Assembly (NCBI RefSeq): GCF_015351075.1
Contig: NZ_JADKRS010000002.1
Span: forward strand, 372,001 to 436,000
Direction of reading: 5' to 3'
Length of the DNA stretch: 64,000 nt
DNA from: Clavibacter sp. VKM Ac-2873
GTDB taxonomy: Bacteria > Actinomycetota > Actinomycetes > Actinomycetales > Microbacteriaceae
Below are positions 6,249 to 53,917 of this stretch, piece after piece. The translations under genes and the position numbers were made by a program. The notes beneath the pieces were generated by a model. The model was not told where the DNA came from. It worked only from the letters and a program-made list of their open reading frames with translations, and did not search any database. How positions within the stretch are numbered: the stretch's first letter is position 1; every line of letters begins with the position of its first letter.

Positions 6249-7385
6249 GTGCCCGTCGTCGCCCCGCTCCACGAGAGATTCCCCGACGTCCGCTCCATCG
6301 CCGTGCTGCGCGGCGGCGGGCTCGGCGACCTGATCTTCGCGCTGCCCGCGATGGCGGCGCTGCGGGCCGCGTACCCGGGGGCGCGGATCACGCTGCTCGG
6401 CACGCCGCTGCATCGCGCGCTCCTCGGCGGCCGGCCGGGCGGGCCCGACGAGATCGAGGTGCTGCCGGTCGCGGCCGGCGTGCGGGACGTGCCGGGCACG
6501 GATCCCGACCCGGCGGAGATCGAGGCGTTCGCCGCCCGCATGCGCGCGCGCCGCTTCGACCTCGCCGTGCAGGTGCACGGCGGCGGCCGCAACTCCAACC
6601 CGTTCCTGCTGCGGCTCGGCGCCCGGCACACGGTGGGCACCGCGACCGACGACGCCGAGCGGCTCGAGCGCGTGATCCCCTACGTCTACTACCAGCACGA
6701 GGTGCTGCGCGGGCTCGAGGTGGCGGGGCTCGCGGGCGCGCCCGTCGTCGACCTGGAGCCGGTGGTCGAGGTGACCGACGCCGAGCGGGCCGCGGCGGCC
6801 GAGCGCGTGACGGGCGCGCCGGGCGGGCTCGTCGTGATCCACCCGGGGGCCACCGACCCGCGCCGCCGCTGGCCCGTGGAGTCGTTCGCGGAGGTCGCGC
6901 GCCGGGCCGCGGCCGACGACGCGCAGGTGGTCGTCGTCGGCGACGCGACGGACGCCGCGGACGCCGACCGCATCGTCGCGCTCGGCCGGGAGGGCCTGCC
7001 CGCGGAGCAGGCCGCGCGGATCGCCTCGCTCGCCGACTCCCTCACCCTCGGCGAGCTCGCGGGCCTCTTCACGCACGCGGACGTCGTGCTCGGCAACGAC
7101 AGCGGCCCGCGGCACCTCGCGCAGGCCGTCGGCGCGCGCACGGTCGGGGTGTTCTGGTTCGGCAACGTGATCAACGCGGCGGCGTTCGGGCGGACGCGGC
7201 ACCGGATCCACATCGGCTGGACCACGCGCTGCCCGGTCTGCGGCGTCGACGTGACCCAGGTCGGCTGGACCGCCGAGCGCTGCGCGCACGACCCGTCGCA
7301 CGTCGCCGAGGTGCGCGTCGACGACGTGCACGCGGACGTGGAGCAGCTGCGGCGGGCGTCGCTCGCGGAGCGCGTCCCGGCCTAG
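6249..7385 (+). CDS. Glycosyltransferase family 9 (heptosyltransferase-like)
   Basis: 378-residue GT-B enzyme of the ADP-heptose:LPS heptosyltransferase family. GTG at 6249 is chosen because AGGAG lies 8 bases upstream. The N-terminal block VLRGGGLGDLIFALPAMAAL is the GT9 acceptor-domain signature; VVIHPGATDPRRRWP and the donor-site block LGNDSGPRHLAQAVGARTVG follow. Near the C-terminus CPVCGVDVTQ...CAHDPSH resembles the Cys-rich tail seen in several GT9 proteins. It starts 85 bp after lacI on the same strand, but its work more likely relates to the heptose operon at 15680-22513. This is one of three GT9 modules in the window. Acceptor unknown. Confidence 0.88.
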   Translation: MPVVAPLHERFPDVRSIAVLRGGGLGDLIFALPAMAALRAAYPGARITLLGTPLHRALLGGRPGGPDEIEVLPVAAGVRDVPGTDPDPAEIEAFAARMRARRFDLAVQVHGGGRNSNPFLLRLGARHTVGTATDDAERLERVIPYVYYQHEVLRGLEVAGLAGAPVVDLEPVVEVTDAERAAAAERVTGAPGGLVVIHPGATDPRRRWPVESFAEVARRAAADDAQVVVVGDATDAADADRIVALGREGLPAEQAARIASLADSLTLGELAGLFTHADVVLGNDSGPRHLAQAVGARTVGVFWFGNVINAAAFGRTRHRIHIGWTTRCPVCGVDVTQVGWTAERCAHDPSHVAEVRVDDVHADVEQLRRASLAERVPA

Positions 7386-10165: not shown

Positions 10166-11533
10166 TCAGCCGCGCCGGAGCGCGAGCGCGTCGTGGAGGG
10201 CGGCGGCGGAGGCGGCCGAGCTGTCGATCCGCCAGTCCTCCTCCTTCTTGAAGTCGAACCACACGAAGCCGAGCACGTCGGGCTGCGCCTGGAGGTACGC
10301 GACGAGGGCGCGGTCCCAGTCGGCCTTGGACCCACCGGTCTCGCTCGACGCGACCTCGCCGACGATGAGCGGCTTCCCGGGCGCGACGGCGCGGAGCTGC
10401 GCGATGCCGGGACCGAAGAGGTCGGCGGGCGCGGTCCAGCGCTGGCCGGAGACGGCGCCCCAGTTGTAGCCGTCGAGCGAGACGACGTCGACCTGGTCGG
10501 CGCCGGGGTAGAGGGAGGCGAGGTCGGTGGATCCCGGGTACGGCACGTTCGGGCTCCACACCCACTTCACGTTGGTGGCGCCCTGCGCGACCACGAGGTC
10601 GTGCACGTGCTTCCACGCGGCGACGTACGAGCCCGGCGCGTTGCCGTTGACGCCGTCGGACCACGGGTACCAGTTGCCGTTCATCTCGTGGCCGTAGCGG
10701 AGGTAGACCGTCTTGCCGTACTTCGCGAGGTCGGCGCCCCACGAGCGGATGTACGCGTCCTGGTCGCCCGCGATGATGCTCGCGTTCGTGTAGGCGGACT
10801 GGGTGGTTCCCGCGCCGCCCTGCCACGGCTCCCACGTGATGAGGCTGTCGGCGCCGCGCGCCGCGACGCTCTGGAGGCCCGCGATGGGCGCCGGGTGCGT
10901 GAAGTCGACGTGGCTCATCACGATGGAGGGGCTCTCGCCGAGGGTCGCCGCCGCGGCGTCGAGCTCGCCGTTCGCCGTCGGCCCGCCGGGCGTGGAGAGG
11001 CCGAGGCGCAGGCGCGCGGAGCTGATGGCGGGGGCCGCGGAGGTCGCGGGCGAGGAGGTCGACGGGGCCGGCCCGGTCGACGACGTGGGCGCGCTCGTGG
11101 GAGCGGGGGTCGGTGCCGGGGCGGGCGCGGAGGAGCGCGCGGATCCGGTCGACGTCGCCGTGGTCACGGTGAAGGCGGCCGAGGCCGAGCGGGTGCCGGC
11201 CGTCGCCGTGATCCGGATGGTGGAGAGCGAGGTGCGGGGGATCGTGATCGCGGCCGTGAGGCGGCCGGTGGCGGTGGTCGTGATGCGCTTCGTGGTCGAC
11301 CCGACCGCGATGACCGCGGCCTTCGCGGCGGGGAAGCCCGTGCCGGTGACCGTCACGGGCGTGCCGATCGGACCGGAGGAGACGGAGAGGACGATCGCGG
11401 CGGGCGCCGTGGGAACGGCCTGGGCCGAGGCGGCGCGGGCGGAGACCGCCGGGGCGACGAGCACCGTGGCCGTCACGACCGCCGGTGCGACGGCGGTGAC
11501 GACAGCGCATTTGAGGCGGCGACGAGTGGGCAT
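10166..11533 (-). CDS. Secreted IPT/TIG-domain GH26-like glycosidase
   Basis: 455 residues, ATG at 11533. A signal peptide (MPTRRRLKCAVVTAVAPAVV... to about residue 38) is followed by an IPT/TIG immunoglobulin-like domain (LSVSSGPIGTPVTVTGTGFP), a Pro/Ala/Ser/Thr linker, and a C-terminal GH26-like (beta-mannanase clan A) catalytic domain. YLRYGHEMNGNWYPW supplies the expected acid/base Glu and LIVGEVASSETGG the nucleophile Glu; VVSLDGYNWG lies between. Substrate could be mannan or another beta-glucan and cannot be fixed here. It has a close paralog just upstream at 11647-12672 without the IPT domain. Confidence 0.85.
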   Translation of the reverse strand: MPTRRRLKCAVVTAVAPAVVTATVLVAPAVSARAASAQAVPTAPAAIVLSVSSGPIGTPVTVTGTGFPAAKAAVIAVGSTTKRITTTATGRLTAAITIPRTSLSTIRITATAGTRSASAAFTVTTATSTGSARSSAPAPAPTPAPTSAPTSSTGPAPSTSSPATSAAPAISSARLRLGLSTPGGPTANGELDAAAATLGESPSIVMSHVDFTHPAPIAGLQSVAARGADSLITWEPWQGGAGTTQSAYTNASIIAGDQDAYIRSWGADLAKYGKTVYLRYGHEMNGNWYPWSDGVNGNAPGSYVAAWKHVHDLVVAQGATNVKWVWSPNVPYPGSTDLASLYPGADQVDVVSLDGYNWGAVSGQRWTAPADLFGPGIAQLRAVAPGKPLIVGEVASSETGGSKADWDRALVAYLQAQPDVLGFVWFDFKKEEDWRIDSSAASAAALHDALALRRG

Positions 11534-11600
11534 GGCGAATAGGGTCCTTCCCCCGATGGATGTATGCGAGCGTATGTTCTTCGGTGCCCGTCGTCCACCG

Positions 11601-11609
11601 GATGTCCGC
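11601..11609. repeat. GATGTCCGC nonamer upstream of first GH26 gene
   Basis: The nine bases gatgtccgc lie 68 bp upstream of the 11533 start, in the 113-bp gap between the GH26 paralogs. The same nonamer occurs twice upstream of the other paralog. Possible regulator half-site; this is inference from recurrence alone. Confidence 0.35.
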
Positions 11610-11646
11610 CGAGCGACGGCATCCGATGGCGGGGGCTGAGCGGCTA

Positions 11647-12672
11647 TCAGACGCGACGGGCGGCGAGCGCGTCGCGGATGGCGGTGGCGGAGGACGCGGA
11701 GCTGCCGATGCGCCAGTCCGCCTCCTTGTCCATGTCGAACCAGACGAAGGCCACCACGTCGGGCTGGGCCTGGAGGAACGAGATGAGATCGCCGTCCCAC
11801 GCGGACTTGGACCCGCCGACCTCGGACGACGCGGTCTCCGCGATGATGATCGGCTTGCCCGCTGCGACGGCGCGCAGCCGCTCGAGGCCGAAGCTGAACA
11901 GGAGGGACGGCGACACCCAGGTGCGGCCGGCGACGCCGGTGCCCCAGTTGTAGCCGTCGAGCCCGACGACGTCGACGTACGCGGCGCCCGGGTAGAGGCC
12001 GGCGAGCAGCGTGGATCCGGTGTACGGCACGTTCGGCGTCCACACCCACTTCACGTTGGTCGCGCCCTGGGCGACGACGACGTCGTGCACGTGCTTCCAC
12101 GCGGCGACGTAGGAGCCCGCCGCGTTGCCGTTGACGCCCTCGGCCCACGGGTACCAGTCGCCGTTCATCTCGTGCGCGTATCGGAGGGAGACGGGGCCGC
12201 CCCAGGCGGCCAGCTCGGATCCCCACTGGCGGAGGTACGCGTCGTGGTCGCCCGCGATGATGCTCGCGTTCGAGAAGCCGGGCTGGTTCACGCCGGCTCC
12301 CGCCTTCCACGGCTCCCAGGTGAGGAGGCTCTCGGCGCCGCGGGCGCGCACGTCGTCGAGGGCGGCGATGGGCGGCGCCTGCGTGAAGTCGGCGTAGGAG
12401 AGCACGATGCTCGGGTCCTCGCCGACCTGCGCGGCGACCGCGTCGAGCTCCTTGCCGGCGGTGGGACCGCCGGGGGTCGCGACGCCGAAGCGGAGCCGCG
12501 CGTCGGAGACGGTCGGGCTGGCGGACGAGGCGCCGGCCACGGTGGGGGCCTGGCTGCTGGTCGCGGCGCTGGCGGGGGATGCTGCGGTGAGGATCCCGGC
12601 GGTGAGGGCGGCACCCAGGAGGAGGGTGGTCGCAAAGCGGATGGGGCGTTGGTGGTGCTGCATTGTGTCCAA
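11647..12672 (-). CDS. Secreted GH26-like glycosidase (paralog)
   Basis: 341 residues, ATG at 12672. Signal peptide MDTMQHHQRPIRFATTLLLG... ends near ASPASAA; the catalytic domain follows directly, without the IPT domain or long linker. VSLRYAHEMNGDWYPW carries the acid/base Glu and IIIAETASSEVGG the nucleophile Glu; ITWEPW/LLTWEPWKAGAG and VVGLDGYNWG are shared with the neighbour. The two proteins align over their whole catalytic domain, so this is a tandem duplication with later divergence. Both are on the minus strand with separate upstream regions, so they may be expressed independently. Confidence 0.85.
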   Translation of the reverse strand: MDTMQHHQRPIRFATTLLLGAALTAGILTAASPASAATSSQAPTVAGASSASPTVSDARLRFGVATPGGPTAGKELDAVAAQVGEDPSIVLSYADFTQAPPIAALDDVRARGAESLLTWEPWKAGAGVNQPGFSNASIIAGDHDAYLRQWGSELAAWGGPVSLRYAHEMNGDWYPWAEGVNGNAAGSYVAAWKHVHDVVVAQGATNVKWVWTPNVPYTGSTLLAGLYPGAAYVDVVGLDGYNWGTGVAGRTWVSPSLLFSFGLERLRAVAAGKPIIIAETASSEVGGSKSAWDGDLISFLQAQPDVVAFVWFDMDKEADWRIGSSASSATAIRDALAARRV

Positions 12673-15679: not shown

Positions 15680-16384
15680 TCACGGCCAGCTGTCCTCCAG
15701 CTCGTGGGTGATGACGAGCTCGCGGATCTCGCAGCCGCGGGGCTGGCCGAGGATGAACATCACGCTGTCGGCGACGGCGGCCGGGTCGTTGAGGTTCGCG
15801 TCGGAGCCGGGCTTGTACTTCGGGTCGCGGTCGTCGAAGAAGTGGGTCTTCATGCCGGAGGGGATCAGCGTGGTCACGCCGACCTCGCCCTTCGTCTCGG
15901 CGGCCAGCGCGCGTGTGAAGCCGAGCACGCCGAACTTGGAGGCGCAGTAGGCGGTCGCATCCGAGACGGCCTTGATGGCGAGCGACGACGCGACGGTGAC
16001 GACGCGGCCGTGCGACGCGGTGAGGAACGGCAGCGCCGCGCGGACGACGGCGACCGTGCCCATGAGGTTCACGCCGATGACCTTCTCCCACTCGGTGGGG
16101 GCGACGTCGACGAGGCGGCCGCAGCGGTCGATGCCCGCGGCGGTGACCACGGCATCCAGCCCGCCGTGCGCCTGGGCGATCTCGGTGACGAGCGCCTCGG
16201 TGGCGCGGGTGTCCGAGACGTCGATGCGGTGCGCCTCCATGCCGGTGACGCTCGAGGTGTCGAGGTCGAGCACGATGGGCTCGCCGCCGGCCGCGAGGAC
16301 CGCCTGCGCGACCGCGGCGCCGAGACCGGACGCGCCTCCGGTGATGAGGACGCGGCCGGTGCCGGGGCGGGGGGAGTCGGTCAT
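15680..16384 (-). CDS. Short-chain dehydrogenase/reductase
   Basis: 234-residue classical SDR. The nucleotide site is LITGGASGLGAAVA near residue 13; VVTAAGIDRCG, the catalytic Ser in VVTVASSLAIKA and the YCASK pair complete the active site; the LDLD after strand 2 suggests NAD preference. It lies 72 bp downstream of the hldE-like gene on the same strand, so it may belong to the heptose operon. It is a classical SDR, not the extended HldD epimerase type, so it does not obviously fill that missing step. Substrate unknown. Confidence 0.88.
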   Translation of the reverse strand: MTDSPRPGTGRVLITGGASGLGAAVAQAVLAAGGEPIVLDLDTSSVTGMEAHRIDVSDTRATEALVTEIAQAHGGLDAVVTAAGIDRCGRLVDVAPTEWEKVIGVNLMGTVAVVRAALPFLTASHGRVVTVASSLAIKAVSDATAYCASKFGVLGFTRALAAETKGEVGVTTLIPSGMKTHFFDDRDPKYKPGSDANLNDPAAVADSVMFILGQPRGCEIRELVITHELEDSWP

Positions 16385-16456
16385 GGGTGTTCCTTCCGTG
16401 GTGCGGATCGCGCGCGTTCGGCGCGGTGGTGCAGGGGAGTGGTGCGGATCAGGGGC

Positions 16457-17854
16457 TCAGCCGACGCGGGCGAGCGCGCCGGCGAGCTTCGTCGTGGAGC
16501 GGCCCGGGTGGTACGGGACGGTCACGGCCTGGCCGCCCCACTCGGCGATGACCGCCGACTCGGGGAGGTCCTCGGCGCGGTAGTCGCCGCCCTTGACCCA
16601 GAGGTCGGGCTGGAGGGAGCGGAGCGCCTCCTCGGGGGTGTCCTCGGAGAAGAGCACGACCGCGTCCACCACGCCGAGCGACATCAGCAGGTCGACGCGG
16701 TCGTCCTCGGGCATGATCGGGCGCTCGGGTCCCTTGAGGCGGCGCACCGAGTCGTCCGAGTTGAGGAGCACGACGAGGCAGTCGCCGAGCGCGCGCGCCG
16801 CCGCGAGGGTGCGGGCGTGGCCGGCGTGCACGAGGTCGAAGCAGCCGCCGGTCGCGACGACCGTGCCGCCTGAGGCGCGGGTCGCGCGGACCACCTCGAG
16901 GGCGCTCGCCGCGTGGCCGCCGATGGGGCGCGCGGCGGGCGGGCCCGTGAGGGTGGCGACGCCGCCCGCGTCCACGTACTCGGCCGCCGCGGCGACGGCA
17001 TCGCGCACGGCGTCCTCCACGGGGGATCCCGCGGCCAGCGCCGCGAGGGCCGAGGCCGCCAAGCGGTCGCCGGCGCCGCACGGGTCGCCGGTCGCGACGA
17101 GCGGGGCGGGGACGACGACGGGCAGGGATCCGCCGGCCGCGCCCTCCGAGCCCGAGCCCGACGCGGGCGCCGACACGAGCAGGGCGCCTCGCTCGCTCAT
17201 GGTCACGGCGACCGTGCGGACGCCCCACCGCTCGAGCAGGAGACGGGCGGCGTCGGCGGCCGCGGCCACGTCGCGCCCGGCTAGCCCGGAGAACGCGCGC
17301 GCCTCGGCGAGGTTCGGGGTGGCGAGCGCGGTGTTCGGGACGGGCGGCTCGCCCGCGGGGTGCGGATCCCACACGAGCGGCACCTGGGCGGCGCGCGCGT
17401 CGAGGGCGGCGCGGAGGCGGGGATCGCGCGTGACGCCGCGGCCGTAGTCGGCCACCACGATCGCGTCGGCGGTGGCGATCGCCGCGAGCATCTCGTCGGT
17501 CGCGGCGGGCGTGGGCGGCGGCGCGCAGCCCTCGTCGATGCGGGCGATGGCGTGGCCGTCGGCGCGGACGCGGGTCTTCACGGGGGTGGGCGCGCCGGAC
17601 GGGCCGGCGACCACCTCGATCCGGTCGAGGCACGCGCGCAGCGTCTCCGCGTGCCGGTCGTCGGAGAGCACGGTGACGAGGCGCACGTCGTGGCCGTCGC
17701 GCGCGAGCATCGTGGCGACGAGGCCGGCTCCGCCCGCGCGGGGCAGCGACTCCTCGACCTCGATCACGGGCACGGGGGCGTCGGGGCTGAGGCGGTGCGC
17801 GGCGCCGGTCATGTCGACGTCGAGGAGCACGTCGCCGACCACGACGATCCTCAC
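16457..17854 (-). CDS. hldE: HldE-like heptose-7-P kinase / nucleotidyltransferase
   Basis: 465 residues, GTG at 17854 overlapping the previous stop by 4 bp. The N-terminal half is a PfkB/ribokinase-type sugar kinase (VVVGDVLLDVDMTG; catalytic GDPCGAGDRLAASAL near residue 270). The C-terminal part is a cytidylyltransferase-like domain: ATGGCFDLVHAGHARTL with the HxGH nucleotide motif, LNSDDSVRRLKG and LWVKGGDY. This is the HldE (RfaE) order. By homology it phosphorylates D-glycero-D-manno-heptose 7-phosphate at C1 and, after dephosphorylation at C7, transfers AMP; use of another nucleotide cannot be excluded. It is encoded with GmhA- and GmhB-type domains, giving a nearly complete pathway. 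Confidence 0.88.
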   Translation of the reverse strand: MRIVVVGDVLLDVDMTGAAHRLSPDAPVPVIEVEESLPRAGGAGLVATMLARDGHDVRLVTVLSDDRHAETLRACLDRIEVVAGPSGAPTPVKTRVRADGHAIARIDEGCAPPPTPAATDEMLAAIATADAIVVADYGRGVTRDPRLRAALDARAAQVPLVWDPHPAGEPPVPNTALATPNLAEARAFSGLAGRDVAAAADAARLLLERWGVRTVAVTMSERGALLVSAPASGSGSEGAAGGSLPVVVPAPLVATGDPCGAGDRLAASALAALAAGSPVEDAVRDAVAAAAEYVDAGGVATLTGPPAARPIGGHAASALEVVRATRASGGTVVATGGCFDLVHAGHARTLAAARALGDCLVVLLNSDDSVRRLKGPERPIMPEDDRVDLLMSLGVVDAVVLFSEDTPEEALRSLQPDLWVKGGDYRAEDLPESAVIAEWGGQAVTVPYHPGRSTTKLAGALARVG

Positions 17855-19827
17855 GCCGGCACCTCCGCCGGTGCGGTCGTGGTGGACGCGGGCGCGACCG
17901 TCACGGGGACGGACGAGGCGGATGTCGCGGACGCCGATGCGGCGGCCGACGCCGACCGGGTCGCGGCCGACGACGTCGCGGATGCGCGTGCCGCGGCCCG
18001 GTCGTTCGCCCGCAGCCGGCTCTCGAACGCGCGGCAGATCGCGTGCACGGCGACGAGCTGCGCCTCCTGCACGTTGGCCGACGGGCCGTCGAGGGCGAGG
18101 GACTCGTCGCACGCCTCCACGAGCGGGTTCGGGCCGGGGCCCGTCATCGCCCAGGTCGTGGCCCCGGCGGCGCGCGCGGCCGCGGCGGCGCGGAGCAGGT
18201 TCTCGCTGCGGCCGCTCGTGGAGAGCAGCACGACGATGTCGCCGGATCGCGCGTGCGCGTGCACCTGCCGGGCGAAGACCTCGTCGAAGCCGTAGTCGTT
18301 GCCGATGGCGGTCACCGCGGACGACTCGGCGTGCAGCGCGATCGCGGAGAACGGGCGGCGGTCGCCGTCGAACCGGCCCACCAGCTCGCTCGTGAGGTGC
18401 TGGGCCTCGGCCGCGGATCCTCCGTTGCCGGCCGCGAGCAGGCGCGCGCCGCGGCTCATGCGGTCCGCCATCTCGCGGCCCCAGGAGGTGAGGCGCGGCG
18501 CGTGCGTGCGGAGGTCGGCGAGCACCGGGGCGAGCGCGTCGAGGTGGGCGTCGACCACGGTCGGGTCGGCGGGGAGGTCGTCGGGGGCGGCGACCTGGAT
18601 CGCGGCCCGGTACGCCTCCGCGGTGCGGGAGGCCACCGTCGACCACGCGTAGCCGTGCTCCATGCGGTCGCGGCCGGCGCGGCCGAGCAGGCGGCGGCGC
18701 GCGGGATCCGCGAGGAGCTCCCCGAGGGCGTCGGCGATGGCGGCGGGGTCGCGCGGCGGCACGAGGATCCCGGTCACGCCGTCGACCACGCTGTCGGTGA
18801 GGCCGCCCACGGCCGACGCGACGACGGGCACCCCGGAGGCCATCGCCTCGAGCGGCACGATGCCGAACGGCTCGTACCAGGGCGCGCAGACCACGACGTC
18901 GGCGGTGCGCATCACCGCGGGCATGTCGGCCTGGGAGACGCGGCCGTGCAGGCGCACGCGGTCGGCGACCCCGGCGGCGCGCGCGGCGTCCATCAGACGG
19001 CGGGCCTCGGGATCGTCCGCGCCGGTCGCGTCGTCGCCGGCTCCGCCCACGATCACCAGCTCGACGTCGCGGCGACCGCGGCCGGCGAGGATCCCGATGG
19101 CCTCGATCGCGAGGTCGACGCCCTTGCGCGGCACGAGGCGGCCGACGACCATGACGCGCATGGGGCGGTCGGCGCCGTGGTCCGGGTCGTCGTCGGCGCG
19201 CGGCGTGAAGTGCCCGATGTCGACGCCGCACGGGATCACCGTGATCCGGGCCGCGTCGACGCCCGCGCGCACGAGCTCGGCGGCCTCGTCGGAGCAGGTC
19301 GCGATCACGGCGTCGGCGCGGCGGCCGACCCCGGGCTCGAGCTCCGCGCGCGCGGAGGGGCTGGTGTCCTCGGCGCCGAGGTGGCGGCGCTTCACGGATC
19401 CGAGCGCGTGGAAGGTGTGCAGCACGGGCGGCGCCGCGGCGGCGCCGACCGGGGAGGACGCGAGGCGCGCGGCGGCGTCGAGGGCGGCGACCCCGGACAT
19501 CCAGAAGTGGCTGTGCACCACGTCGGGCCGGGCGGTGCGCCAGTCGGCGAGGAGGCCGTCGGCGAGCTCGCCCATGTGCGGCAGCAGCTCGTCCTTGGGG
19601 ACGGCGCGGGCGGGTCCGGCGTCGAGGTGCACGACCTCCACGCCGGGCGCGAACGCCACGCGGGCGGGCAGCGCCTCGTCGTCGCGGCGCGTGTAGACGG
19701 TGACGGTGTGGCCCTCCTCCGCGAGCGCGGCCGACAGCGCGGCCACGTGCACGTTCTGGCCGCCGGCGTCCACGCCGCCGAGCGTCGCCAGCGGGCTGGC
19801 GTGCTCCGAGATCATCGCGATCCTCAT
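17851..19827 (-). CDS. GT4 glycosyltransferase fused to GmhA-like isomerase
   Basis: 658 residues, ATG at 19827 in a 4-bp ATGA overlap with the gene before it. Residues about 1-415 are a GT-B family 4 glycosyltransferase (MISEHASPLATLGGVDAGGQ; VVGRLVPRKGVDLAIEA; donor-site PWYEPFGIVPLEAMASGVPV). Residues about 430-600 are a SIS domain of the sedoheptulose-7-phosphate isomerase type (AAGNGGSAAEAQHLTSELVG; VVLLSTSGRSENLL; EAQLVAVHAICRAFE). A low-complexity Ala/Ser tail follows. The isomerase would make heptose 7-phosphate, the substrate of the next gene. The join is in frame with no stop or repeat, and both halves keep their key motifs, so this looks like a true fusion. Confidence 0.87.
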   Translation of the reverse strand: MRIAMISEHASPLATLGGVDAGGQNVHVAALSAALAEEGHTVTVYTRRDDEALPARVAFAPGVEVVHLDAGPARAVPKDELLPHMGELADGLLADWRTARPDVVHSHFWMSGVAALDAAARLASSPVGAAAAPPVLHTFHALGSVKRRHLGAEDTSPSARAELEPGVGRRADAVIATCSDEAAELVRAGVDAARITVIPCGVDIGHFTPRADDDPDHGADRPMRVMVVGRLVPRKGVDLAIEAIGILAGRGRRDVELVIVGGAGDDATGADDPEARRLMDAARAAGVADRVRLHGRVSQADMPAVMRTADVVVCAPWYEPFGIVPLEAMASGVPVVASAVGGLTDSVVDGVTGILVPPRDPAAIADALGELLADPARRRLLGRAGRDRMEHGYAWSTVASRTAEAYRAAIQVAAPDDLPADPTVVDAHLDALAPVLADLRTHAPRLTSWGREMADRMSRGARLLAAGNGGSAAEAQHLTSELVGRFDGDRRPFSAIALHAESSAVTAIGNDYGFDEVFARQVHAHARSGDIVVLLSTSGRSENLLRAAAAARAAGATTWAMTGPGPNPLVEACDESLALDGPSANVQEAQLVAVHAICRAFESRLRANDRAAARASATSSAATRSASAAASASATSASSVPVTVAPASTTTAPAEVPA

Positions 19828-20876
19828 CGTGTCGTCCTCTCGTCGAGCGGGTGGTGCGGGGAGTGCGTGGGGGTGGATGCGGCGGGCGCGCGCCGGGCAC
19901 GACGACCGGCGGTCGCGTCCACGGCGTCGTGCAGCGCGGCGTCCATGTCGCGCAGGAACCGGCCGAGCGAGTAGCGGGCGAGCGCGGCCTCGCGGGCGAT
20001 GCGGCCGCGGCGGGCGGCCTCGTCGGGATCCGCGAGGAGCAGCCGGGCGGTGCGCACGAGGTCGGCCGGATCCGACGAGATCGCGCCCGCGTCCGGCGGC
20101 ACCGCGCGCGACGCCTCGGTCGCGTCGAGCACCAGCACGGGCATCCCCAGGTGCATGGCCTCGAGCAGCGACAGGCCGAGCGACGTCCAGCGGTGCGGGT
20201 GGACGTAGGCGCGTAGGCGCGCGAGCTCGGGGTGCATGCGCGCCGTGGGCAGGTCCCCGCGCGGCACGAGGCGCGCGCCGAGGCGCGGGAACGCCGCGGG
20301 CAGGAGGTCGGTCCCCATCCCGAACACCTCGACGGGCGCGATCCCCGCGAAGGCCGGCAGCAGGTCGGTGCCGGTGATGCGCCCGCGACGCACGGGCTCG
20401 TTGATCACCGCGCCGAAGGACGCGGCCTCGCCCGTGTAGAGCGCGCCCGGGTCGGGCACTCCGTGCTCGACGACCGTGGTCGGCGCGGATCCCGTGTCCC
20501 ACATGAGCGCGTTGAAGCGCGTGACGTGGATCACCGGGATGTCGTCGCGGTCGGCCAGCGCGTGCACGGTCTCGGTCGGGGCGCCGCGCGGGGTGTTGTG
20601 CTCGAGGAAGACCGCGGGCACGTCGGATCCGAGGCGGCGGCCGAGCAGGCGCTCCGCCTCCTCGATCTCGGCGACGCGCTGGAGGAGCACGAGGTCGACG
20701 TGCGTCTCGTGCAGGGACGACGGGTCCACCTCGCGCGCGCTCGCGGGCCACGCGCGGCCGCCGCGGCCGAGGCCCCACGCGTCGCGCGCCGGCGTGGTCG
20801 GGAACAGGATCTCGTGGGAGCCGCGCACGAACGAGTCGGTCCAGCCGCCGTGGACGTGCCACATCAGGATCCTCAT
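19824..20876 (-). CDS. Glycosyltransferase (GT-B, group 1 type)
   Basis: 350 residues, ATG at 20876, overlapping its neighbours by 4 bp on each side. MRILMWHVHGGWTDSFVRGSH starts the acceptor domain; AVFLEHNTPRG and VIHVTRFNALMWDTG follow; the donor-binding region is YVHPHRWTSLGLSLLEAMHL with Glu in the expected EX7E-like place. The family transfers nucleotide-activated sugars. Within this operon it probably adds a sugar to the heptose-containing glycan; donor and acceptor are unknown. A Pro/His/Arg-rich 30-residue C-terminal tail looks disordered. Confidence 0.83.
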   Translation of the reverse strand: MRILMWHVHGGWTDSFVRGSHEILFPTTPARDAWGLGRGGRAWPASAREVDPSSLHETHVDLVLLQRVAEIEEAERLLGRRLGSDVPAVFLEHNTPRGAPTETVHALADRDDIPVIHVTRFNALMWDTGSAPTTVVEHGVPDPGALYTGEAASFGAVINEPVRRGRITGTDLLPAFAGIAPVEVFGMGTDLLPAAFPRLGARLVPRGDLPTARMHPELARLRAYVHPHRWTSLGLSLLEAMHLGMPVLVLDATEASRAVPPDAGAISSDPADLVRTARLLLADPDEAARRGRIAREAALARYSLGRFLRDMDAALHDAVDATAGRRARRAPAASTPTHSPHHPLDERTTR

Positions 20877-22513
20877 GCGGGCACCTCCGCGCCGGCGCGC
20901 GCGGCGGCGTGCGCGGGGTCGCGCTCGGCCGCGTGCTCGGATCCGGGCCCGCTCGTGGCCAGCAGGCGCTCGACCGCGTCGGCGACCTCCGCGGGGGAGA
21001 CGCCGGCGAGGCAGGGGTGGCCGGGCACCGGGCAGTCGCGCGCGCGGCTGAGCCGGCACGGCGCGTCCTGGTCGCCGAGCAGGATCACGGGCACGCGGTA
21101 CGGCGCCCAGCGGATCGGCGGCACGACGGGCGAGAACAGGCTGACGACGGGCAGCCCCACCGCGGCGGCGAGGTGCGCCGGCCCGGTGTTGCCGCTCACG
21201 AGCACGGCCGCGCGGCGCATGAGCGCGCCGAGGCCCGCGAGGTCGGTGCGGCCGCCGAGGTCGATGCCGGCGGATCCGGCGACGTGCGCCGTGAGGTCCC
21301 GCTCGTCGGGGCCGCCGGTGACGACCACGGGGATCCCGCGCTCGACGAGGAGCGCGACGGCGTCGCGGTGCTGGTCTTCGGGGTAGGAGCGCGCGCCGAC
21401 CGCGGCGCCCGGGTGCACGAGCGCGAACGGGCCGTCCGGGAGGAGCGCCGCCACGTCGGACGGCAGCTCGGCCGGCAGGACGGCGAGGCGCCCGTCGTCG
21501 TCGGCGGGCAGCGCGTGCCCACCCGCGGCGGCGATCGCGAGGGCGCGCTCGGGCTCGGGCTGGTCCTCCTCGAGGTCCTCGCCGGGCTTCAGGCGCACGT
21601 CGAGGAGGGAGCCGGCGTAGTCGACGCTGGCGCCCGTGATCCGCCGCACTCCCGCCAGGCGCAGCAGCAGCGCGAGCGGCAGCGGCGACTGGTGGAAGGA
21701 CGTGAGGATGACGGCCTCGTCGGCGTCGACCTCGGCGAGGATCGCGTGCAGGGCGTCGACCGACGCGGCGTCGGCGGCGGGCGCGGGGGAGGAGATCCAC
21801 GGCGCGTCCCACACGTGCACCGCGTGGACGCCGGGCAGCAGCCGGCCGGCGGACGCGCCGCGCGGTCCGCACAGCAGGTGGACCTCGACGCGCGCGTCGG
21901 CCGCGACGGCGCGCACCGCGGGCCCCGAGATGAGCACGTCGCCCACGGAGTCGAGCCGCACGACGAGCACGCGGCGGGGCGCGGGATCGTGGATGAGGAG
22001 GTGCACCGCGTCGAGGATCGTCGGGGCCACCAGCTCCGCCTCAGCCACCTCCTCCTCGCGCGTGACGGGCGTCGGCACGAGCACGCCGCGCGCGCCCGCG
22101 GCCCGGGCGGCGCCCATGTCGGCCGCGATGTCGCCCACCACGGCGACGCGCGCCGGATCCACGCCCCACGTCCGGCAGGCCTCGAGCACCATGCCGGGCC
22201 GGGGCTTGCGGCAGTCGCAGCCGTCGTCGGATCCGTGCGGGCACAGCAGCACGAGGTCGAACGCGCCGAGCAGCTCCTGCACGCGCGCGTTGACGGCGTC
22301 GGCCTGCGCGCGCGTGATGAGGCCGCGCGCGATCCCGGACTGGTTGGTCACCATGCCGACGCGGAGGCCCGCGGCGCGCACGGCGTCGACGGCCTCGCGG
22401 GCGCCGGGCATCAGCGTGACGAGCGCCGGATCCCCGTTGTACGGCACGTCGACGACGAGCGTCCCGTCCCGGTCGAACAGGACGGCCTCGAGGTCGTTCC
22501 CGGGCGAGCGCAT
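20873..22513 (-). CDS. GmhB-like phosphatase fused to GT9 heptosyltransferase
   Basis: 546 residues; ATG at 22513 (MRSPGNDLEAVLFDRDGT) is preferred, with an in-frame ATG at 22546 possible. Residues 1-165 are a HAD-IIIA phosphatase: LFDRDGTLV, VTNQSGIARG, the zinc-type cluster CPHGSDDGCDCRKPRPGM and VVGDIAADM, as in D-glycero-D-manno-heptose-1,7-bisphosphate 7-phosphatase. Residues about 185-530 are GT9: VVRLDSVGDVLISGPAVRA, ALVHPGAAVGARSYP and VSGNTGPAHLAAAVGLPVV. It is the first gene of the heptose operon. The fusion puts the phosphatase that yields heptose 1-phosphate on the same chain as the transferase expected to use the activated sugar. Confidence 0.88.
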   Translation of the reverse strand: MRSPGNDLEAVLFDRDGTLVVDVPYNGDPALVTLMPGAREAVDAVRAAGLRVGMVTNQSGIARGLITRAQADAVNARVQELLGAFDLVLLCPHGSDDGCDCRKPRPGMVLEACRTWGVDPARVAVVGDIAADMGAARAAGARGVLVPTPVTREEEVAEAELVAPTILDAVHLLIHDPAPRRVLVVRLDSVGDVLISGPAVRAVAADARVEVHLLCGPRGASAGRLLPGVHAVHVWDAPWISSPAPAADAASVDALHAILAEVDADEAVILTSFHQSPLPLALLLRLAGVRRITGASVDYAGSLLDVRLKPGEDLEEDQPEPERALAIAAAGGHALPADDDGRLAVLPAELPSDVAALLPDGPFALVHPGAAVGARSYPEDQHRDAVALLVERGIPVVVTGGPDERDLTAHVAGSAGIDLGGRTDLAGLGALMRRAAVLVSGNTGPAHLAAAVGLPVVSLFSPVVPPIRWAPYRVPVILLGDQDAPCRLSRARDCPVPGHPCLAGVSPAEVADAVERLLATSGPGSEHAAERDPAHAAARAGAEVPA

Positions 22514-22642
22514 GGTCGGCCAGTACCCGACTGATCCTCGACCCAAACCCGGCGGCGGGCACTTCTCCTCGGGGCGTCCCGCTCCTCCGCGGATCCCCGG
22601 AGCAGCGCCCTCGGGCGGGGGCGCGACGACGGGGGCGCGCCG

Positions 22643-32787: not shown

Positions 32788-33813
32788 ATGCAGACCCCCG
32801 GCGTCCCCGCCGCCCACCCCGACGCCGCCGACCACCCGGACGAGATCCTCGTCCTCCGCGCCATCAAGCTCGGCGACATCCTCGTGGCCGTCCCCGCGCT
32901 CCGCGCCATCCGCCGCGCGCACCCCGACGCCCGCATCTCGCTCGCCACCACCGGCTGGCTCGCCTCGGTCGTCCGCCTCCTCGGGATGGTCGACGAGCAC
33001 CTCCCGCAGCAGGGCTTCGACCACCCCATCGCGCGCGAGCCCGGCACGGTCGACCTCGCCATCAACCTGCACGGCGCAGGCCACGAGAGCCGCACGCTCC
33101 TCCACGAGCTCCGCGCGCACCGCACCCTCGGCCATGCCGCGCCCGAGCTGGACGGCATGCCCGCCGCCGACGGTCCCGCGTGGGAGGACCACGTCCTCGA
33201 ACGGTACCGCTGGGCCCGGCTCGTGTCCTGGCACGGCATGCCCGCGGATCCGGACGACGTCGGCATCCTCGTCCCCGACGAGCCGCCCGTCGCCGAGCGC
33301 GCCGTCGTGATCCACGTGGGCGCCGCCTACGGATCCCGCCAGTGGCCCGTCGACCGCTTCGCCGCGGTCGCCCGCGCGCTCGCCGACGAGGGTCGCACGG
33401 TCGTCTTCACCGGCAGCGACAAGGAGCGCGAGCGCGCCCTCGAGGTCGCCGCGCTCGCCGGCATGCCCACGTCGACCGTGCTCGCGGGCGAACTCGCCCT
33501 CGATGAGTTCGCCGGCATCATCGCCGCCGCCGACCTCGTGATCTCCGCCGACACCGGCGCCGCCCACCTCGCGTCCGCCTACGGCATCCCCTCGGTCGTG
33601 ATCTTCGGCCCGGCCCCGCCCGAGGAGTGGGGCCCGCCCGCATCCGGCCCGCACATCGTGCTGACCGACGCGTCGCAGCGCCTCGGCGACACGTTCTCCG
33701 CCATCCCGGATCCGGCGCTCCTCGCGATCACGCCCGCCCACGTCCTCGAGGCGGCGCGCGGTCTCGACGGACACCGCGTGATCCGCCCCCTCACGGGCGA
33801 GCCGCGCGACTGA
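32788..33813 (+). CDS. Glycosyltransferase family 9
   Basis: 341 residues, ATG at 32788; an in-frame ATG 14 codons upstream is less likely. GT9 blocks: VLRAIKLGDILVAVPALRAI, VVIHVGAAYGSRQWPVDRF and ISADTGAAHLASAYGIPSVV. It is the third GT9 module of the window and, like the others, probably transfers heptose or a related nucleotide-activated sugar in the envelope. It starts 64 bp after the DedA gene on the same strand and could share its transcript. Confidence 0.88.
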   Translation: MQTPGVPAAHPDAADHPDEILVLRAIKLGDILVAVPALRAIRRAHPDARISLATTGWLASVVRLLGMVDEHLPQQGFDHPIAREPGTVDLAINLHGAGHESRTLLHELRAHRTLGHAAPELDGMPAADGPAWEDHVLERYRWARLVSWHGMPADPDDVGILVPDEPPVAERAVVIHVGAAYGSRQWPVDRFAAVARALADEGRTVVFTGSDKERERALEVAALAGMPTSTVLAGELALDEFAGIIAAADLVISADTGAAHLASAYGIPSVVIFGPAPPEEWGPPASGPHIVLTDASQRLGDTFSAIPDPALLAITPAHVLEAARGLDGHRVIRPLTGEPRD

Positions 33814-51961: not shown

Positions 51962-52144
51962 TCAGCGCTGCTTGGGGAAGACGATCCAGAGGATCAGGTA
52001 CAGCAGGACCTGCGGGCCCGGCAGCACGATCGAGAGCACGAACAGCAGGCGGACGAGGAAGCGGCTGATGCCGAAGCGGTCGGCGAGGGCGGCGCAGACG
52101 CCGGCGATGATCTTCCCGCGACGGGGACGCATGAGGGTGGCCAT
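51962..52144 (-). CDS. PspC-domain protein
   Basis: 60 residues, ATG at 52144. Nearly all of it is the PspC domain: RGKIIAGVCAALADRFGISR and LLFVLSIVLPGPQVLLYLILW, ending VFPKQR. Small PspC proteins sit in the membrane and are tied to phage-shock/envelope-stress responses. Stand-alone gene. Confidence 0.88.
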   Translation of the reverse strand: MATLMRPRRGKIIAGVCAALADRFGISRFLVRLLFVLSIVLPGPQVLLYLILWIVFPKQR

Positions 52145-52389
52145 GCACCGAGCATGGCAGGCGCGCCTGCGCCGCCGCCGGATCGGCGCCTCCTGTCGCG
52201 CGGGGCGCGGCCGCGAACGGCTCCCCGTGAGTTCTCCTCCCAGATGCTTAGGGCGCAAACCCATGGTGCGATACTCGAATGGTCGAGCCGGGGCTCGGCG
52301 TCTCCCCCGCGACGCGGCGGGCCACGGCCGGCCACGGCATGCCGGACCCGAGGAGCCGCCGCCGTCCCCGACCACAGGGAAGGGGCCGG

Positions 52390-52965
52390 ATGGAGCAGCA
52401 CCGCTCGACCCTGCCCGTCCACGTCGTCGCCGCGTTCCACGCCGCTCCGAGCCGCGCCGCCGGCGTCGAGCTGCTGCTCGCCGCCCTCCTCGAGGCCTCC
52501 TCCGCGACGGGCGCCGCCGTGGTCCTGCCGCGCGCGTCGGAGGTCGCGACGGCGGGGGAGTCCGGCGGCGCGCTCGGCGCGCTCCTCGTGGACGGCCGCG
52601 TGCCCGTCGGACCCGGGCTGCTGCTCGTCGCGCTGGCCGACGGCGGCGACGCGTACGCCGGGGGTGGCGCCGTCGCGCTGCACCGCGCGACCGGGGCGCT
52701 CGCGGCGGCCGACCGCGCCGTGGCCGAGGAGGTCGCGGTGCACGCGCGCATCGCGCTCGCCGCGTGGGACGCCGCGGACGACCTGGCGCTCGGTCTCGCA
52801 TCGCGCTCCGTCATCGGCCAGGCGCAGGGGATCCTCATGGAGCGGTTCTCGCTCGACGCCGACCGCGCGTTCCAGGTGCTCCGCCGCTACTCGCAGGACG
52901 GCAACGTGAAGCTCGTCGAGGTCGCGCGCCGCGTCGTGCGGACGGGCGCGCTGCCGACCTCCTGA
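52390..52965 (+). CDS. ANTAR-domain protein (possible RNA antiterminator)
   Basis: 191 residues, ATG at 52390 after GGGAAGGGG. The N-terminal 130 residues are a degenerate GAF-like sensory region; the C-terminal ANTAR domain is clear: SRSVIGQAQGILMERFSLDA then AFQVLRRYSQDGNVKLVEVA. ANTAR proteins bind paired RNA hexaloop stem-loops and prevent termination. It is convergent with, and 34 bp from, the sigma-factor gene; together they suggest a stress-regulation locus. Confidence 0.87.
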   Translation: MEQHRSTLPVHVVAAFHAAPSRAAGVELLLAALLEASSATGAAVVLPRASEVATAGESGGALGALLVDGRVPVGPGLLLVALADGGDAYAGGGAVALHRATGALAAADRAVAEEVAVHARIALAAWDAADDLALGLASRSVIGQAQGILMERFSLDADRAFQVLRRYSQDGNVKLVEVARRVVRTGALPTS

Positions 52966-52999: not shown

Positions 53000-53917
53000 T
53001 CAGGCCGTGCGCCGGTCGACCCCGCGCGGCCGGATCGGCGACACGGCGGCCAGCGGCGCCATCTCCGGCAGGGTCTCGGCCTCGCCGCGGGTCAGCTCGG
53101 CGCGCAACGCCCCGAGGATCCGCGCGAGCAGCCGCGAGACCTGCATCTGCGTCACCCCGAGCTCGGCCGCGATCTCGCTCTGGCTGCGCTCGTCGACGAA
53201 GCGCAGGTGCAGGATCCGCCGGTCGCGATCGCTGAGCACGCCGCGCGCCGCGTCCAGCAGCACCGTGCGCTCGGCGCGCGCGTAGCCGGGGTCGTCGGTG
53301 CCGATGGTGTCCGCGAGGGAGGTGCCCTCGTCCTCGTGCACCGTGAAGTCGAGCGACGCGGGCCGGAGGCTGGAGTGCGCCGCGAGCGCCTCGGCGACCT
53401 CCTCGCGCGCGTGCCCGGTGTGCGCGGCGAGCTCGGCGTCGGTCGGCGTGCGGCCGAGGCGCTGCGTGAGCGCCGGCACGGCCGCGAGCAGCGCGTGCCG
53501 CAGCTCCTGGACCTGCCGCGGCGGGCGGATCACCCACCCGTTGTCGCGCAGGTGGCGCTTGATCTCGCCGGAGATGGTGGGGATCGCGAACGACACGAAG
53601 GGCGCGCCGAACCCCGGGTCGTAGCGGCGCGCGGCCTTCACGAGGCCGAGGTAGCCGACCTGGCGCAGGTCGCTCCAGTCGTGCGCACGGCCCGAGTGCT
53701 GGCGCGCGAGCTGGTCGGCGAGCTCGAGGTGGTCGAGCACGATCTGGTCGTGCAGGCGGCGGCGCTCGGCCTCGCCCGCGGCGTCCTCGGCCACGGCCGC
53801 GGCGCGGACGAACCGCTCGTGGGTCAGCCGACGCTTCTCGTCCCGCGCTGCCGTGAGGCCGGGCGCGAGGGCGGGAGGGGCGGCGGCGAGGGCGCGCGTG
53901 CGCAGCGTTGCGGTCAC
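53000..53917 (-). CDS. SigB/SigF-type alternative sigma factor
   Basis: 305 residues. Region 2: DHLELADQLARQH..., WSDLRQVGYLGLVKAARRYD and FVSFAIPTISGEIKRHLRDN; region 3 is RPPRQVQELRHALL onward; region 4 is RFVDERSQSEIAAELGVTQM with VSRLLARILGALR. This is the SigB/SigF/SigG subfamily that controls general stress regulons. No anti-sigma or anti-anti-sigma gene is adjacent. An N-terminal extension of about 45 residues and a short C-terminal tail are unremarkable. Confidence 0.92.
   Translation of the reverse strand: MTATLRTRALAAAPPALAPGLTAARDEKRRLTHERFVRAAAVAEDAAGEAERRRLHDQIVLDHLELADQLARQHSGRAHDWSDLRQVGYLGLVKAARRYDPGFGAPFVSFAIPTISGEIKRHLRDNGWVIRPPRQVQELRHALLAAVPALTQRLGRTPTDAELAAHTGHAREEVAEALAAHSSLRPASLDFTVHEDEGTSLADTIGTDDPGYARAERTVLLDAARGVLSDRDRRILHLRFVDERSQSEIAAELGVTQMQVSRLLARILGALRAELTRGEAETLPEMAPLAAVSPIRPRGVDRRTA

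What the first reader, a model, noticed from the sequence alone, without database searches (positions are those of the whole stretch)
15680..22513. Heptose-activation operon with two fusions to glycosyltransferases and no HldD
Five minus-strand genes, four of them joined by 4-bp overlaps, encode GmhB-, GmhA- and HldE-type functions together with GT9, GT4 and another GT-B transferase. These are the steps to an activated D-glycero-D-manno-heptose, well known for LPS but unexpected in an LPS-free Gram-positive cell. No extended-SDR HldD epimerase is seen; the SDR present is of the classical YxxxK type. The product is probably an ADP- (or other NDP-) D,D-heptose used in an envelope glycan or released as a signal.
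Basis: partly seen in the sequence, partly recalled or inferred. Interest (0 to 1): 0.8.

Follow-up and report, generated by a model that had tools for sequence, protein, structure and literature searches.

The report
Stress-linked heptose glycan locus, Gram-positive
Many Gram-positive soil and plant bacteria share a gene locus that very probably makes an activated seven-carbon sugar and attaches it to a still unknown molecule, and a general-stress sigma factor gene often sits beside it.

Summary
The operon is real and correctly placed, in a Clavibacter-like genome. All four steps to an activated D,D-manno-heptose are encoded with their catalytic residues, and no HldD passes its cut-off in this genome or in 49 other carriers. 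It is not an oddity of one cell: it is one pulled-apart copy of a locus that I counted in 119 distinct stretches across Actinomycetota, of which 77 also hold a second HldE, 90 GT9c and 74 GT9b, and 61 a SigB/F/G-like sigma factor gene. GT9 and HldE occur in exactly the same 32 of 199 Microbacteriaceae genomes, so the GT9 enzymes very probably use the product. A classical, probably NAD-dependent SDR is in 108 of 119. The two fusions join genes that are separate in nearly all relatives. A SigB/F-like promoter match lies 35 nt before the operon. I read it as a stress-linked heptose glycoconjugate pathway, a new variant of a known kind. Acceptor, SDR reaction and product location are unknown; nothing supports release as a signal; the paper listings seen held no chemistry.

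The parts
20873..22513 (-). GmhB-type HAD phosphatase fused to GT9a (heptosyltransferase family)
   Evidence: GmhB residues D11, D13, C92, H94, C107, C109, K111, D136 (E. coli numbering) kept in 110 of 110 rows; GT9a carries N at the WaaC D261 position in 109 of 109
19824..20876 (-). GT-B glycosyltransferase (GTB), used as the signature gene of the locus
   Evidence: AlphaFold mean pLDDT 90.4; Foldseek's best matches are GT4-type enzymes: BshA, PimB', GlgM, sucrose-phosphate synthase
17851..19827 (-). GT4 (MshA/sucrose-phosphate-synthase-like) fused to GmhA-type SIS isomerase
   Evidence: H61/E65 in 114 of 114, Q172/H180 in 112 of 112 readable rows; K78 117 of 119, R160 119 of 119
16457..17854 (-). 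HldE_A: heptose-7-P kinase / heptose-1-P nucleotidyltransferase, GTG start, ends with YHPGRSTT near the C-terminus (R at the STTR5 position)
15680..16384 (-). Classical SDR (N106-S133-Y146-K150; D40 suggests NAD(H))
22524..22548 (-). SigB/F-like promoter match GTTT-N16-GGGTA, 35 nt before the operon's ATG; the only strict match in the window on both strands (about 1.7 expected at the background rate)
6249..7385 (+). GT9b, belongs to the locus, displaced in Clavibacter
32788..33813 (+). GT9c, belongs to the locus, displaced in Clavibacter
53000..53917 (-). SigB/SigF/SigG-type sigma factor; relatives lie within 1.5 kb of GT9c in 45 of 90 loci that have GT9c, 19 kb away here

Best explanation
The operon is the core (A-module) of an Actinomycetota-wide locus for a heptose-containing glycoconjugate. 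[quoted passage not shown] GT9a, GT9b and GT9c, with GT4 and GTB, transfer heptose and other sugars onto an acceptor; the GT4 keeps a lysine and an arginine that align with phosphate ligands of MshA, so a phosphorylated acceptor (inositol phosphate, sugar phosphate or phosphoinositide) is likely for that step. The SDR oxidises or epimerises a heptose intermediate; HldD is absent. A second module (aldehyde dehydrogenase, HldE_B and, in most relatives, a GT2 that the window strain lacks) supplies a second heptose pool or a modified heptose. The locus is linked to a SigB/F-type general-stress sigma factor. Shown by sequence: gene content, catalytic residues, absence of HldD, co-occurrence, linkage. 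Inferred: reactions, nucleotide, acceptor, stress induction.
For: Domains. Catalytic residues kept. Kinase domains of HldE_A and HldE_B fall with E. coli HldE, apart from RbsK, PfkB and FruK (the three are long branches). HldE and GT9 in the identical 32 of 199 Microbacteriaceae genomes (19 of 85 genera each); in the phylum sample 37 of 37 HldE genomes have GT9. All 3 GT9, both strong HldE, the only GmhB match and the only strong GmhA match of this genome lie within about 37 kb. 119 distinct core loci: GmhB 111, GT9a 113, GmhA 114, HldE_A kinase 114, SDR 108. HldD over cut-off in 0 of 50 carriers. SDR N-S-Y-K and D40 kept in 106-107 of 107. Sigma factor within 1.5 kb of GT9c in 45 of 90 loci, 44 of these 45 in one arrangement. 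Promoter-like match before GmhB in 8 of 49 against 14 of 520 other upstream regions, p=2e-4; before the carbamoyltransferase 4 of 17, p=0.0016. A Burkholderia multivorans replicon carries SDR-GmhB-GT9-carbamoyltransferase-GT2-GT9-GTB, a Caballeronia plasmid the same without that SDR, both without GmhA or HldE in the stretch, as expected of Gram-negatives that make heptose for LPS (recalled).
Against: No chemistry. The A-module enzymes score below NCBIfam cut-offs (rfaE_dom_I 138 of 345, dom_II 177.6 of 181.5, GmhB 77 of 149.6, GmhA 132.7 of 209.45). The GmhA zinc and catalytic residues also occur in a SIS protein of a catabolic cluster in related genomes, which scores higher on the GmhA profile (160-169 against 136 bits), so the isomerase's substrate is not settled by sequence. 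Reduced loci exist: GTB alone (L240, L241), HldE_B with GT9b/c but no A-module (L134), no GmhA or HldE_A (L138; L244 with L136). Eight phylum genomes have GT9 without a strong HldE. The SDR is missing in the Streptomyces plasmid locus L252 and only 35-38% identical in four type II loci. Promoter enrichment without Clavibacter is not significant for the strict pattern (3 of 44, p=0.14; loose 9 of 44, p=2.6e-4), and GT9c upstreams have none (0 of 48). In 8 of 27 family genomes searched the sigma factor has no good match near the locus.
Confidence: 0.72

Rival explanations
1. A secreted or wall-linked envelope glycan containing ADP-D,D-heptose.
For: GT9 family; type II loci add a carbamoyltransferase and a GT2; heptose in Gram-positive S-layer glycans is known (recalled).
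Against: No flippase, polymerase or exporter among the widely shared gene clusters printed; a simple hydropathy scan of the reference proteins passes its threshold only at single stretches of the aldehyde dehydrogenase (2.08) and GT9c (1.93).
Confidence: 0.4
2. A cytosolic soluble heptose oligosaccharide or glycosylated small molecule made on a phosphorylated acceptor, acting as a stress protectant.
For: GT4 nearest to Tll1590, a sucrose-phosphate synthase (1.3e-62), and MshA (4e-52), with K78 and R160 kept; core enzymes look soluble; sigma-factor linkage.
Against: GT9 enzymes such as WaaC and WaaF act on membrane lipids (recalled); soluble enzymes can also act on lipids, and flipping may be done in trans.
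Confidence: 0.3
3. The sugar is not a heptose: the HldE-like and GmhA-like enzymes act on hexoses, as assumed for the bleomycin sugar synthase BlmC (GDP-mannose/gulose).
For: BlmC, BlmD and BlmE are described as sugar synthase, carbamoyltransferase and sugar transferase (PMC7017467, passages), which resembles type II gene content; catabolic SIS relatives share the GmhA residues.
Against: A hexose route needs neither GmhA nor a 7-phosphatase; GmhB zinc and DxD residues kept in 110 of 110; HldE kinase and nucleotidyltransferase domains group with E. coli HldE; GT9 tracks HldE without exception in the family sample. That BlmC resembles HldE is recalled, not tested.
Confidence: 0.12
4. NDP-heptose is released as a signal or immune agonist.
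For: NDP-heptoses are ALPK1 agonists (PMC11461863, PMC11573728).
Against: Several glycosyltransferases are bound to the locus; ALPK1 homologues are present only in vertebrates (PMC11573728); no exporter seen.
Confidence: 0.04

Closest known systems
ADP-heptose pathway for the LPS inner core (GmhA, HldE, GmhB, HldD; E. coli)
   Same: Same isomerase, kinase/nucleotidyltransferase and phosphatase with the same catalytic residues; GT9 transferases.
   Different: No HldD over cut-off in 50 of 50 carriers; a classical SDR in the locus; two HldE paralogues; no LPS expected in these Gram-positives (recalled).
Cross-kingdom NDP-heptose biosynthetic enzymes with STTR5 nucleotidyltransferases (Tang et al. 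2024, seen only through PMC11461863 and PMC11573728)
   Same: Didomain kinase/nucleotidyltransferase; HldE_A has R at the diagnostic position in 104 of 109 readable rows.
   Different: Window motif is YHPGRSTT, so position 1 is Y rather than F or L; the text read names septacidin, LPS, capsule and protein glycosylation as uses, not this locus.
GDP-alpha-D,D-heptose pathway of Gram-positives (Aneurinibacillus S-layer; M. tuberculosis GmhA)
   Same: Sedoheptulose 7-phosphate isomerised by GmhA in a Gram-positive (PMC7705670, start of abstract in the listing; Aneurinibacillus recalled).
   Different: Here a PfkB-type HldE rather than the GHMP kinase and guanylyltransferase (HddA/HddC, recalled); no such domain in the operon.
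Septacidin / hygromycin B heptose pathways of Streptomyces
   Same: Actinobacterial use of ADP-heptose (septacidin named in PMC11461863 and PMC11573728).
   Different: Those are strain-specific antibiotic clusters (recalled); this locus is spread over the phylum and its shared clusters hold no scaffold gene that I recognised.

Membership tests
NDP-beta-D-manno-heptose pathway (GmhA/HldE/GmhB) | GmhA-type SIS with H61, E65, Q172, H180 | tested here: met
   114/114, 114/114, 112/112, 112/112 readable; DiaA lacks E65 and H180. Caveat: a catabolic SIS also keeps them
NDP-beta-D-manno-heptose pathway (GmhA/HldE/GmhB) | Bifunctional PfkB kinase (GAGD) plus HxGH nucleotidyltransferase grouping with HldE | tested here: met
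   kinase outgroups are long branches and the bootstrap had not settled
NDP-beta-D-manno-heptose pathway (GmhA/HldE/GmhB) | GmhB DxD plus CxH..CxC zinc site | tested here: met
   110 of 110 rows
NDP-beta-D-manno-heptose pathway (GmhA/HldE/GmhB) | NCBIfam curated cut-offs | tested here: not met
   HldE_A, GmhB and GmhA below cut-off; HldE_B domain II above it (198.5 against 181.5) but its domain I below (216.5 against 345)
NDP-beta-D-manno-heptose pathway (GmhA/HldE/GmhB) | Enzymatic formation of NDP-heptose | not testable with these tools
   needs an assay
STTR5 nucleotidyltransferase | (F/L)XXGRSTT | tested here: inconclusive
   G, R, S, T, T met; first residue is Y in the window
LPS inner-core heptose pathway | HldD epimerase (TIGR02197) | tested here: not met
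   0 of 50 over cut-off; 2 of 14 control genomes over cut-off
GDP-alpha-heptose pathway | GHMP-type heptose kinase and guanylyltransferase in the operon | tested here: not met
   one search finds PfkB plus cytidylyltransferase-like only; the rest of the genome was not searched for them
GT9 heptosyltransferase | WaaC D13, K192, D261 (roles recalled) | tested here: inconclusive
   D13 kept in all readable rows; K192 is R except 2 GT9c rows; D261 is N in GT9a 109/109, D in GT9b 74/74 and GT9c 83/83
SigB/F general-stress regulon | Linked sigma factor and GTTT-N14..17-GGGTA promoter (consensus recalled) | tested here: inconclusive
   expression not testable

The most novel reading that the evidence does not exclude
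A conserved, partly mobile locus of Actinomycetota and, in related form, Burkholderiaceae makes an undescribed stress-induced glycoconjugate from two heptose pools: HldE_A yields a CDP/UDP/ADP-D,D-heptose and HldE_B a second one. A classical NAD-dependent SDR, in type I often with an aldehyde dehydrogenase, converts the heptose into an oxidised or epimerised form, for instance a hepturonic acid. This would be a physiological role for non-ADP heptoses, which a 2024 commentary calls elusive.
Probability: 0.4. Interest if true: 0.82.

Novelty: new variant of a known kind. Interest (0 to 1): 0.62.

Why it matters
Heptose is taught as a hallmark of Gram-negative LPS and is sensed by vertebrates as such. 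A phylum-wide Gram-positive locus with HldE-coupled heptosyltransferases and a linked stress sigma factor implies a class of heptose glycoconjugates that has probably not been looked for, and gives named genera (Paenarthrobacter, Arthrobacter, Sinomonas) in which the role of NDP-heptoses outside LPS can be tested directly. PMC11573728 says the roles of CDP- and UDP-heptose remain elusive and suggests reading the conserved neighbours of these genes; this is such a reading.

Tried and rejected
Considered and rejected: (a) the fusions as the novelty: they are lineage-specific joins, with separate ones in L099 (GmhB::GT9a), L096 and L211 (GT4::GmhA), and GT2::GmhB in 19 of 20 type II loci. (b) SDR as a plain stand-in for HldD: a 33%-identical SDR also sits in the Burkholderia multivorans locus, whose host should have HldD for its LPS (recalled, not tested), so a distinct modification is more likely. 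(c) SDR substrate by sequence or fold: only generic SDRs come up. (d) GTB function by fold: GT4-type enzymes in general. (e) Extra GmhA copies elsewhere as support for HldE_B in genomes without an A-module GmhA: in the five genomes looked at (G303, G363, G316, G366, G418) the copy lies in a ROK kinase/alpha-mannosidase-like cluster (names read from sequence), so this argument was dropped. (f) The B. cenocepacia low-oxygen locus as the Burkholderia counterpart: passages of PMC6127331 read; membership not shown, not claimed.

Gene calls in loci came from my own codon-based caller, which gave no genes in L074, L100, L104, L106 and L107; counts therefore rest on tblastn. Of 156 loci (76 drawn including the window, 80 named), 127 hold GTB and GT4 at 45% identity or more; asking GT4 at 50% and removing identical GT4 segments left 119. 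Thresholds were 45% identity, 40% for the HldE_A kinase and 38% for GT9c; parts beyond a fetched stretch are counted as absent. One search used only upstream regions with at least 60 nt of intergenic space. The DNA query also held a stretch outside the sigma factor gene, which gave some of the weak matches.
Full report
Observation. The five genes are where the finding puts them. Translations give P0001 (GmhB-like HAD fused to GT9), P0002 (GT-B), P0003 (GT4 fused to a GmhA-like SIS), P0004 (HldE layout) and P0005 (classical SDR), with three 4-bp overlaps and a 72-bp gap before the SDR. Pfam and NCBIfam agree. In whole-genome searches the only GmhB match, the only strong GmhA match (a second has 27.7 bits), the two strong HldE nucleotidyltransferase domains (a third has 62 bits) and all three GT9 genes lie within about 37 kb of one contig. 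HldD is absent: best TIGR02197 match 98.5 bits against a cut-off of 274.6.

Identity. The best named relatives of P0002 are Clavibacter lycopersici and Clavibacter sp. VKM Ac-2872, 91% (records of the window's own genome may be left out there), so I call the genome Clavibacter-like.

Catalytic competence. Against E. coli K-12 references, GmhA H61, E65, Q172 and H180, GmhB D11, D13, C92, H94, C107, C109, K111 and D136, the HldE GAGD motif and the HxGH motif are present. Over the distinct loci they are kept in every readable row, or all but one. DiaA lacks E65 and H180. A caution: SIS proteins in a ROK kinase/mannosidase-like cluster of related genomes also keep these residues and score higher on the GmhA profile (160-169 against 136 bits). 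The isomerase alone therefore does not prove heptose; the four-step set together with GT9 is the argument. Kinase trees put HldE_A (31 rows, 100/98) and HldE_B with E. coli HldE and away from RbsK, PfkB and FruK (96/96), which are long branches whose place is less sure; the SIS trees do not resolve DiaA.

A phylum-wide locus. Of 296 Actinomycetota genomes, 37 have an rfaE domain II match of 175 bits or more; the next match has 110 bits. Of 199 Microbacteriaceae genomes, 32 have P0004 relatives at E 1e-20 or better. 27 of them match as the HldE_A orthologue (in two only the kinase part matched, one with a stop codon; in one the match came in two pieces), and all 27 have a second match of the HldE_B kind. 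Fetched neighbourhoods and 80 named loci (544 confirmed, best 80 kept, so biased to close relatives) show two types. Type I (Microbacteriaceae, Arthrobacter and relatives, Brevibacterium, some Pseudonocardiaceae): GT9c / GmhB-GT9a-GTB-GT4-GmhA-HldE_A-SDR / GT9b / ALDH-HldE_B-GT2 (GT2; in named loci ALDH is often not seen). Type II: carbamoyltransferase-GT2::GmhB-GT9a-GTB-GT4-GmhA-HldE_A-SDR-GT9c. In 119 distinct core loci: GmhB 111, GT9a 113, GmhA 114, HldE_A kinase 114, HldE_A nucleotidyltransferase 110, SDR 108, GT9c 90, HldE_B 77, GT9b 74, ALDH 63, carbamoyltransferase 21; HldE_B and carbamoyltransferase are never in one fetched stretch; 21 loci show neither, among them short stretches and the Clavibacter loci whose parts lie further off.

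In the window the type I locus is pulled apart. HldE_B and ALDH lie at G000:C7:368710-371693, just left of the window; GT9b at 6249-7385; the core at 15680-22513; GT9c at 32788-33813. Three other Clavibacter genomes have HldE_B and ALDH likewise some 15 kb beyond the core, with GT9b between. The GT2 that follows HldE_B in most type I loci is not there in the window strain but is kept in another Clavibacter (L145).

Heptose and GT9 belong together. GT9 occurs in exactly the 32 Microbacteriaceae genomes that have HldE and in none of the other 167 (Fisher p 1e-37, not corrected for kinship; 19 of 85 genera). In the phylum sample 37 of 37 HldE genomes have GT9; 8 of the other 259 also do. GTB occurs in 33 of 199: 31 of the 32 plus two genomes without HldE.

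SDR. HldD is over its cut-off in 0 of 50 carriers; the locus has a classical SDR. Of 47 drawn loci with the core and HldE_A, 42 have it at 45% identity or more; of the other five, four have a 35-38% SDR within the fetched stretch and one stretch ends beside HldE_A. N106 is kept in 106 of 107 rows, S133, Y146, K150 and D40 in 107 of 107; that D40 points to NAD is a recalled rule. The fold is ordinary SDR. A 33%-identical SDR stands before GmhB, GT9, carbamoyltransferase, GT2, GT9 and GTB in Burkholderia multivorans, without GmhA or HldE in the stretch. The Caballeronia locus and the Streptomyces plasmid locus L252 lack it.

Two HldE. HldE_A carries arginine at the STTR5 position in 104 of 109 readable rows; HldE_B has mainly histidine (45), arginine (20) or glutamine (7) among 76 rows, two unreadable. 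The commentaries (PMC11461863 and PMC11573728, part 1 of 2 of each text read; Tang et al. itself not read) tie this arginine to use of CTP and UTP. The window motif starts with Y, not F or L.

Acceptor. GT4 is closest to Tll1590, a sucrose-phosphate synthase, and MshA. It keeps the lysine (117 of 119) and arginine (119 of 119) that align with MshA K78 and R154, recalled as phosphate ligands, while Y110 is F and T134 is A. GT9a has asparagine where WaaC has D261, in 109 of 109. Among the 25 shared gene clusters printed none that is widely shared looks like a transporter or polymerase (one ABC-ATPase-like cluster in 5 loci, sugar ABC permeases in Clavibacter only). I therefore leave open lipid-bound, wall-bound or soluble products.

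Stress link. A SigB/F/G-type sigma factor gene (TIGR02980 227 bits for the window copy, just under the cut-off of 234.35) is found in 61 of 119 loci and within 1.5 kb of GT9c in 45 of the 90 loci with GT9c; the median gap is 136.5 bp over the 50 loci with both, and 44 of the 45 have one arrangement. In 27 Microbacteriaceae genomes searched by DNA the best match lies within 3 kb of GT9c in 15, 19-25 kb away in the 4 Clavibacter, and in the other 8 it is elsewhere or weak (my reading of the positions). The strict pattern GTTT-N14..17-GGGTA occurs once in the window on both strands (about 1.7 expected from the background rate), 35 nt before the operon ATG, and at the same place in all six Clavibacter loci. 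With intergenic controls: GmhB 8 of 49 against 14 of 520, p=2e-4; without Clavibacter 3 of 44, p=0.14 (loose pattern 9 of 44, p=2.6e-4); carbamoyltransferase 4 of 17, p=0.0016; GT9b 3 of 50 strict (p=0.18), 11 of 50 loose (p=3.5e-5); ALDH 2 of 43; GT9c 0 of 48; GTB 0 of 25; SDR 0 of 40. The Streptomyces plasmid locus sits among STAS, ANTAR, PP2C and CsbD genes and the B. multivorans locus near BON and DUF2795 genes; DUF2795 follows HldE_B here and lies within about 1 kb of HldE_B in 17 loci. I rate stress control likely, not shown.

Literature. Ten searches of the PMC library, most with capped lists, listed no paper whose title or abstract start treats this locus or heptose in these bacteria's envelopes; subscription journals are mostly not held. 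A Frankia paper lists a gene annotated 'ADP-heptose:LPS heptosyltransferase' as up-regulated by salt (PMC5563000, passages); whether it belongs to this locus was not tested.

Verdict. The pathway reading is sound; the fusion, signal and rarity parts are not. The new points are the conserved locus, the paired HldE, the SDR without HldD, the GT9 coupling and the sigma-factor linkage.

Noticed in passing
L251:12001-14050 (Clavibacter californiensis plasmid pCCa); G402:C2:4923-6793: A mobilizable 78-kb plasmid carries a second, 50%-identical GTB and an adjacent GT9.
   Followed up: partly
L252:7829-18333; L253:4852-11335: Linear Streptomyces plasmids carry a type II heptose locus (CA-256286), or a GmhA-kinase-nucleotidyltransferase three-domain protein with carbamoyltransferase and GT9 beside radical SAM, P450 and serine hydroxymethyltransferase genes (pFRL3), suggesting horizontal spread and a natural-product variant.
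   Followed up: partly
L249:7611-14936; L250:6405-12936: Burkholderia multivorans and Caballeronia replicons carry a related carbamoyltransferase/GT9/GTB locus without GmhA or HldE, next to sigma-54 regulators and near BON and DUF2795 genes in B. multivorans.
   Followed up: partly
L254:5222-5803; L255:5663-6247; L256:5729-6331; L257:5856-6476; L258:5966-6583: A GmhA-like SIS protein with all GmhA zinc/catalytic residues sits in a ROK kinase/alpha-mannosidase-like cluster of Microbacteriaceae; its substrate is unknown.
   Followed up: partly
L083:7652-17000; L110:8066-16000: Actinomycetota genomes of another family have GmhA and GmhB side by side (one protein in L110) followed by HldE, GT9s, GTB, GT4, SDR and ALDH: a third architecture.
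   Followed up: no
window 10166-12663: Two tandem paralogues (436 and 338 aa), secreted-looking and shared with other Clavibacter, lie inside the split locus.
   Followed up: no
window 51962-52965: A PspC-domain gene and an ANTAR-domain gene lie next to the SigB/F/G-type sigma factor.
   Followed up: no
G000:C1:1179169-1179558: A third, weak (62 bits) rfaE domain II match in the window's genome.
   Followed up: no
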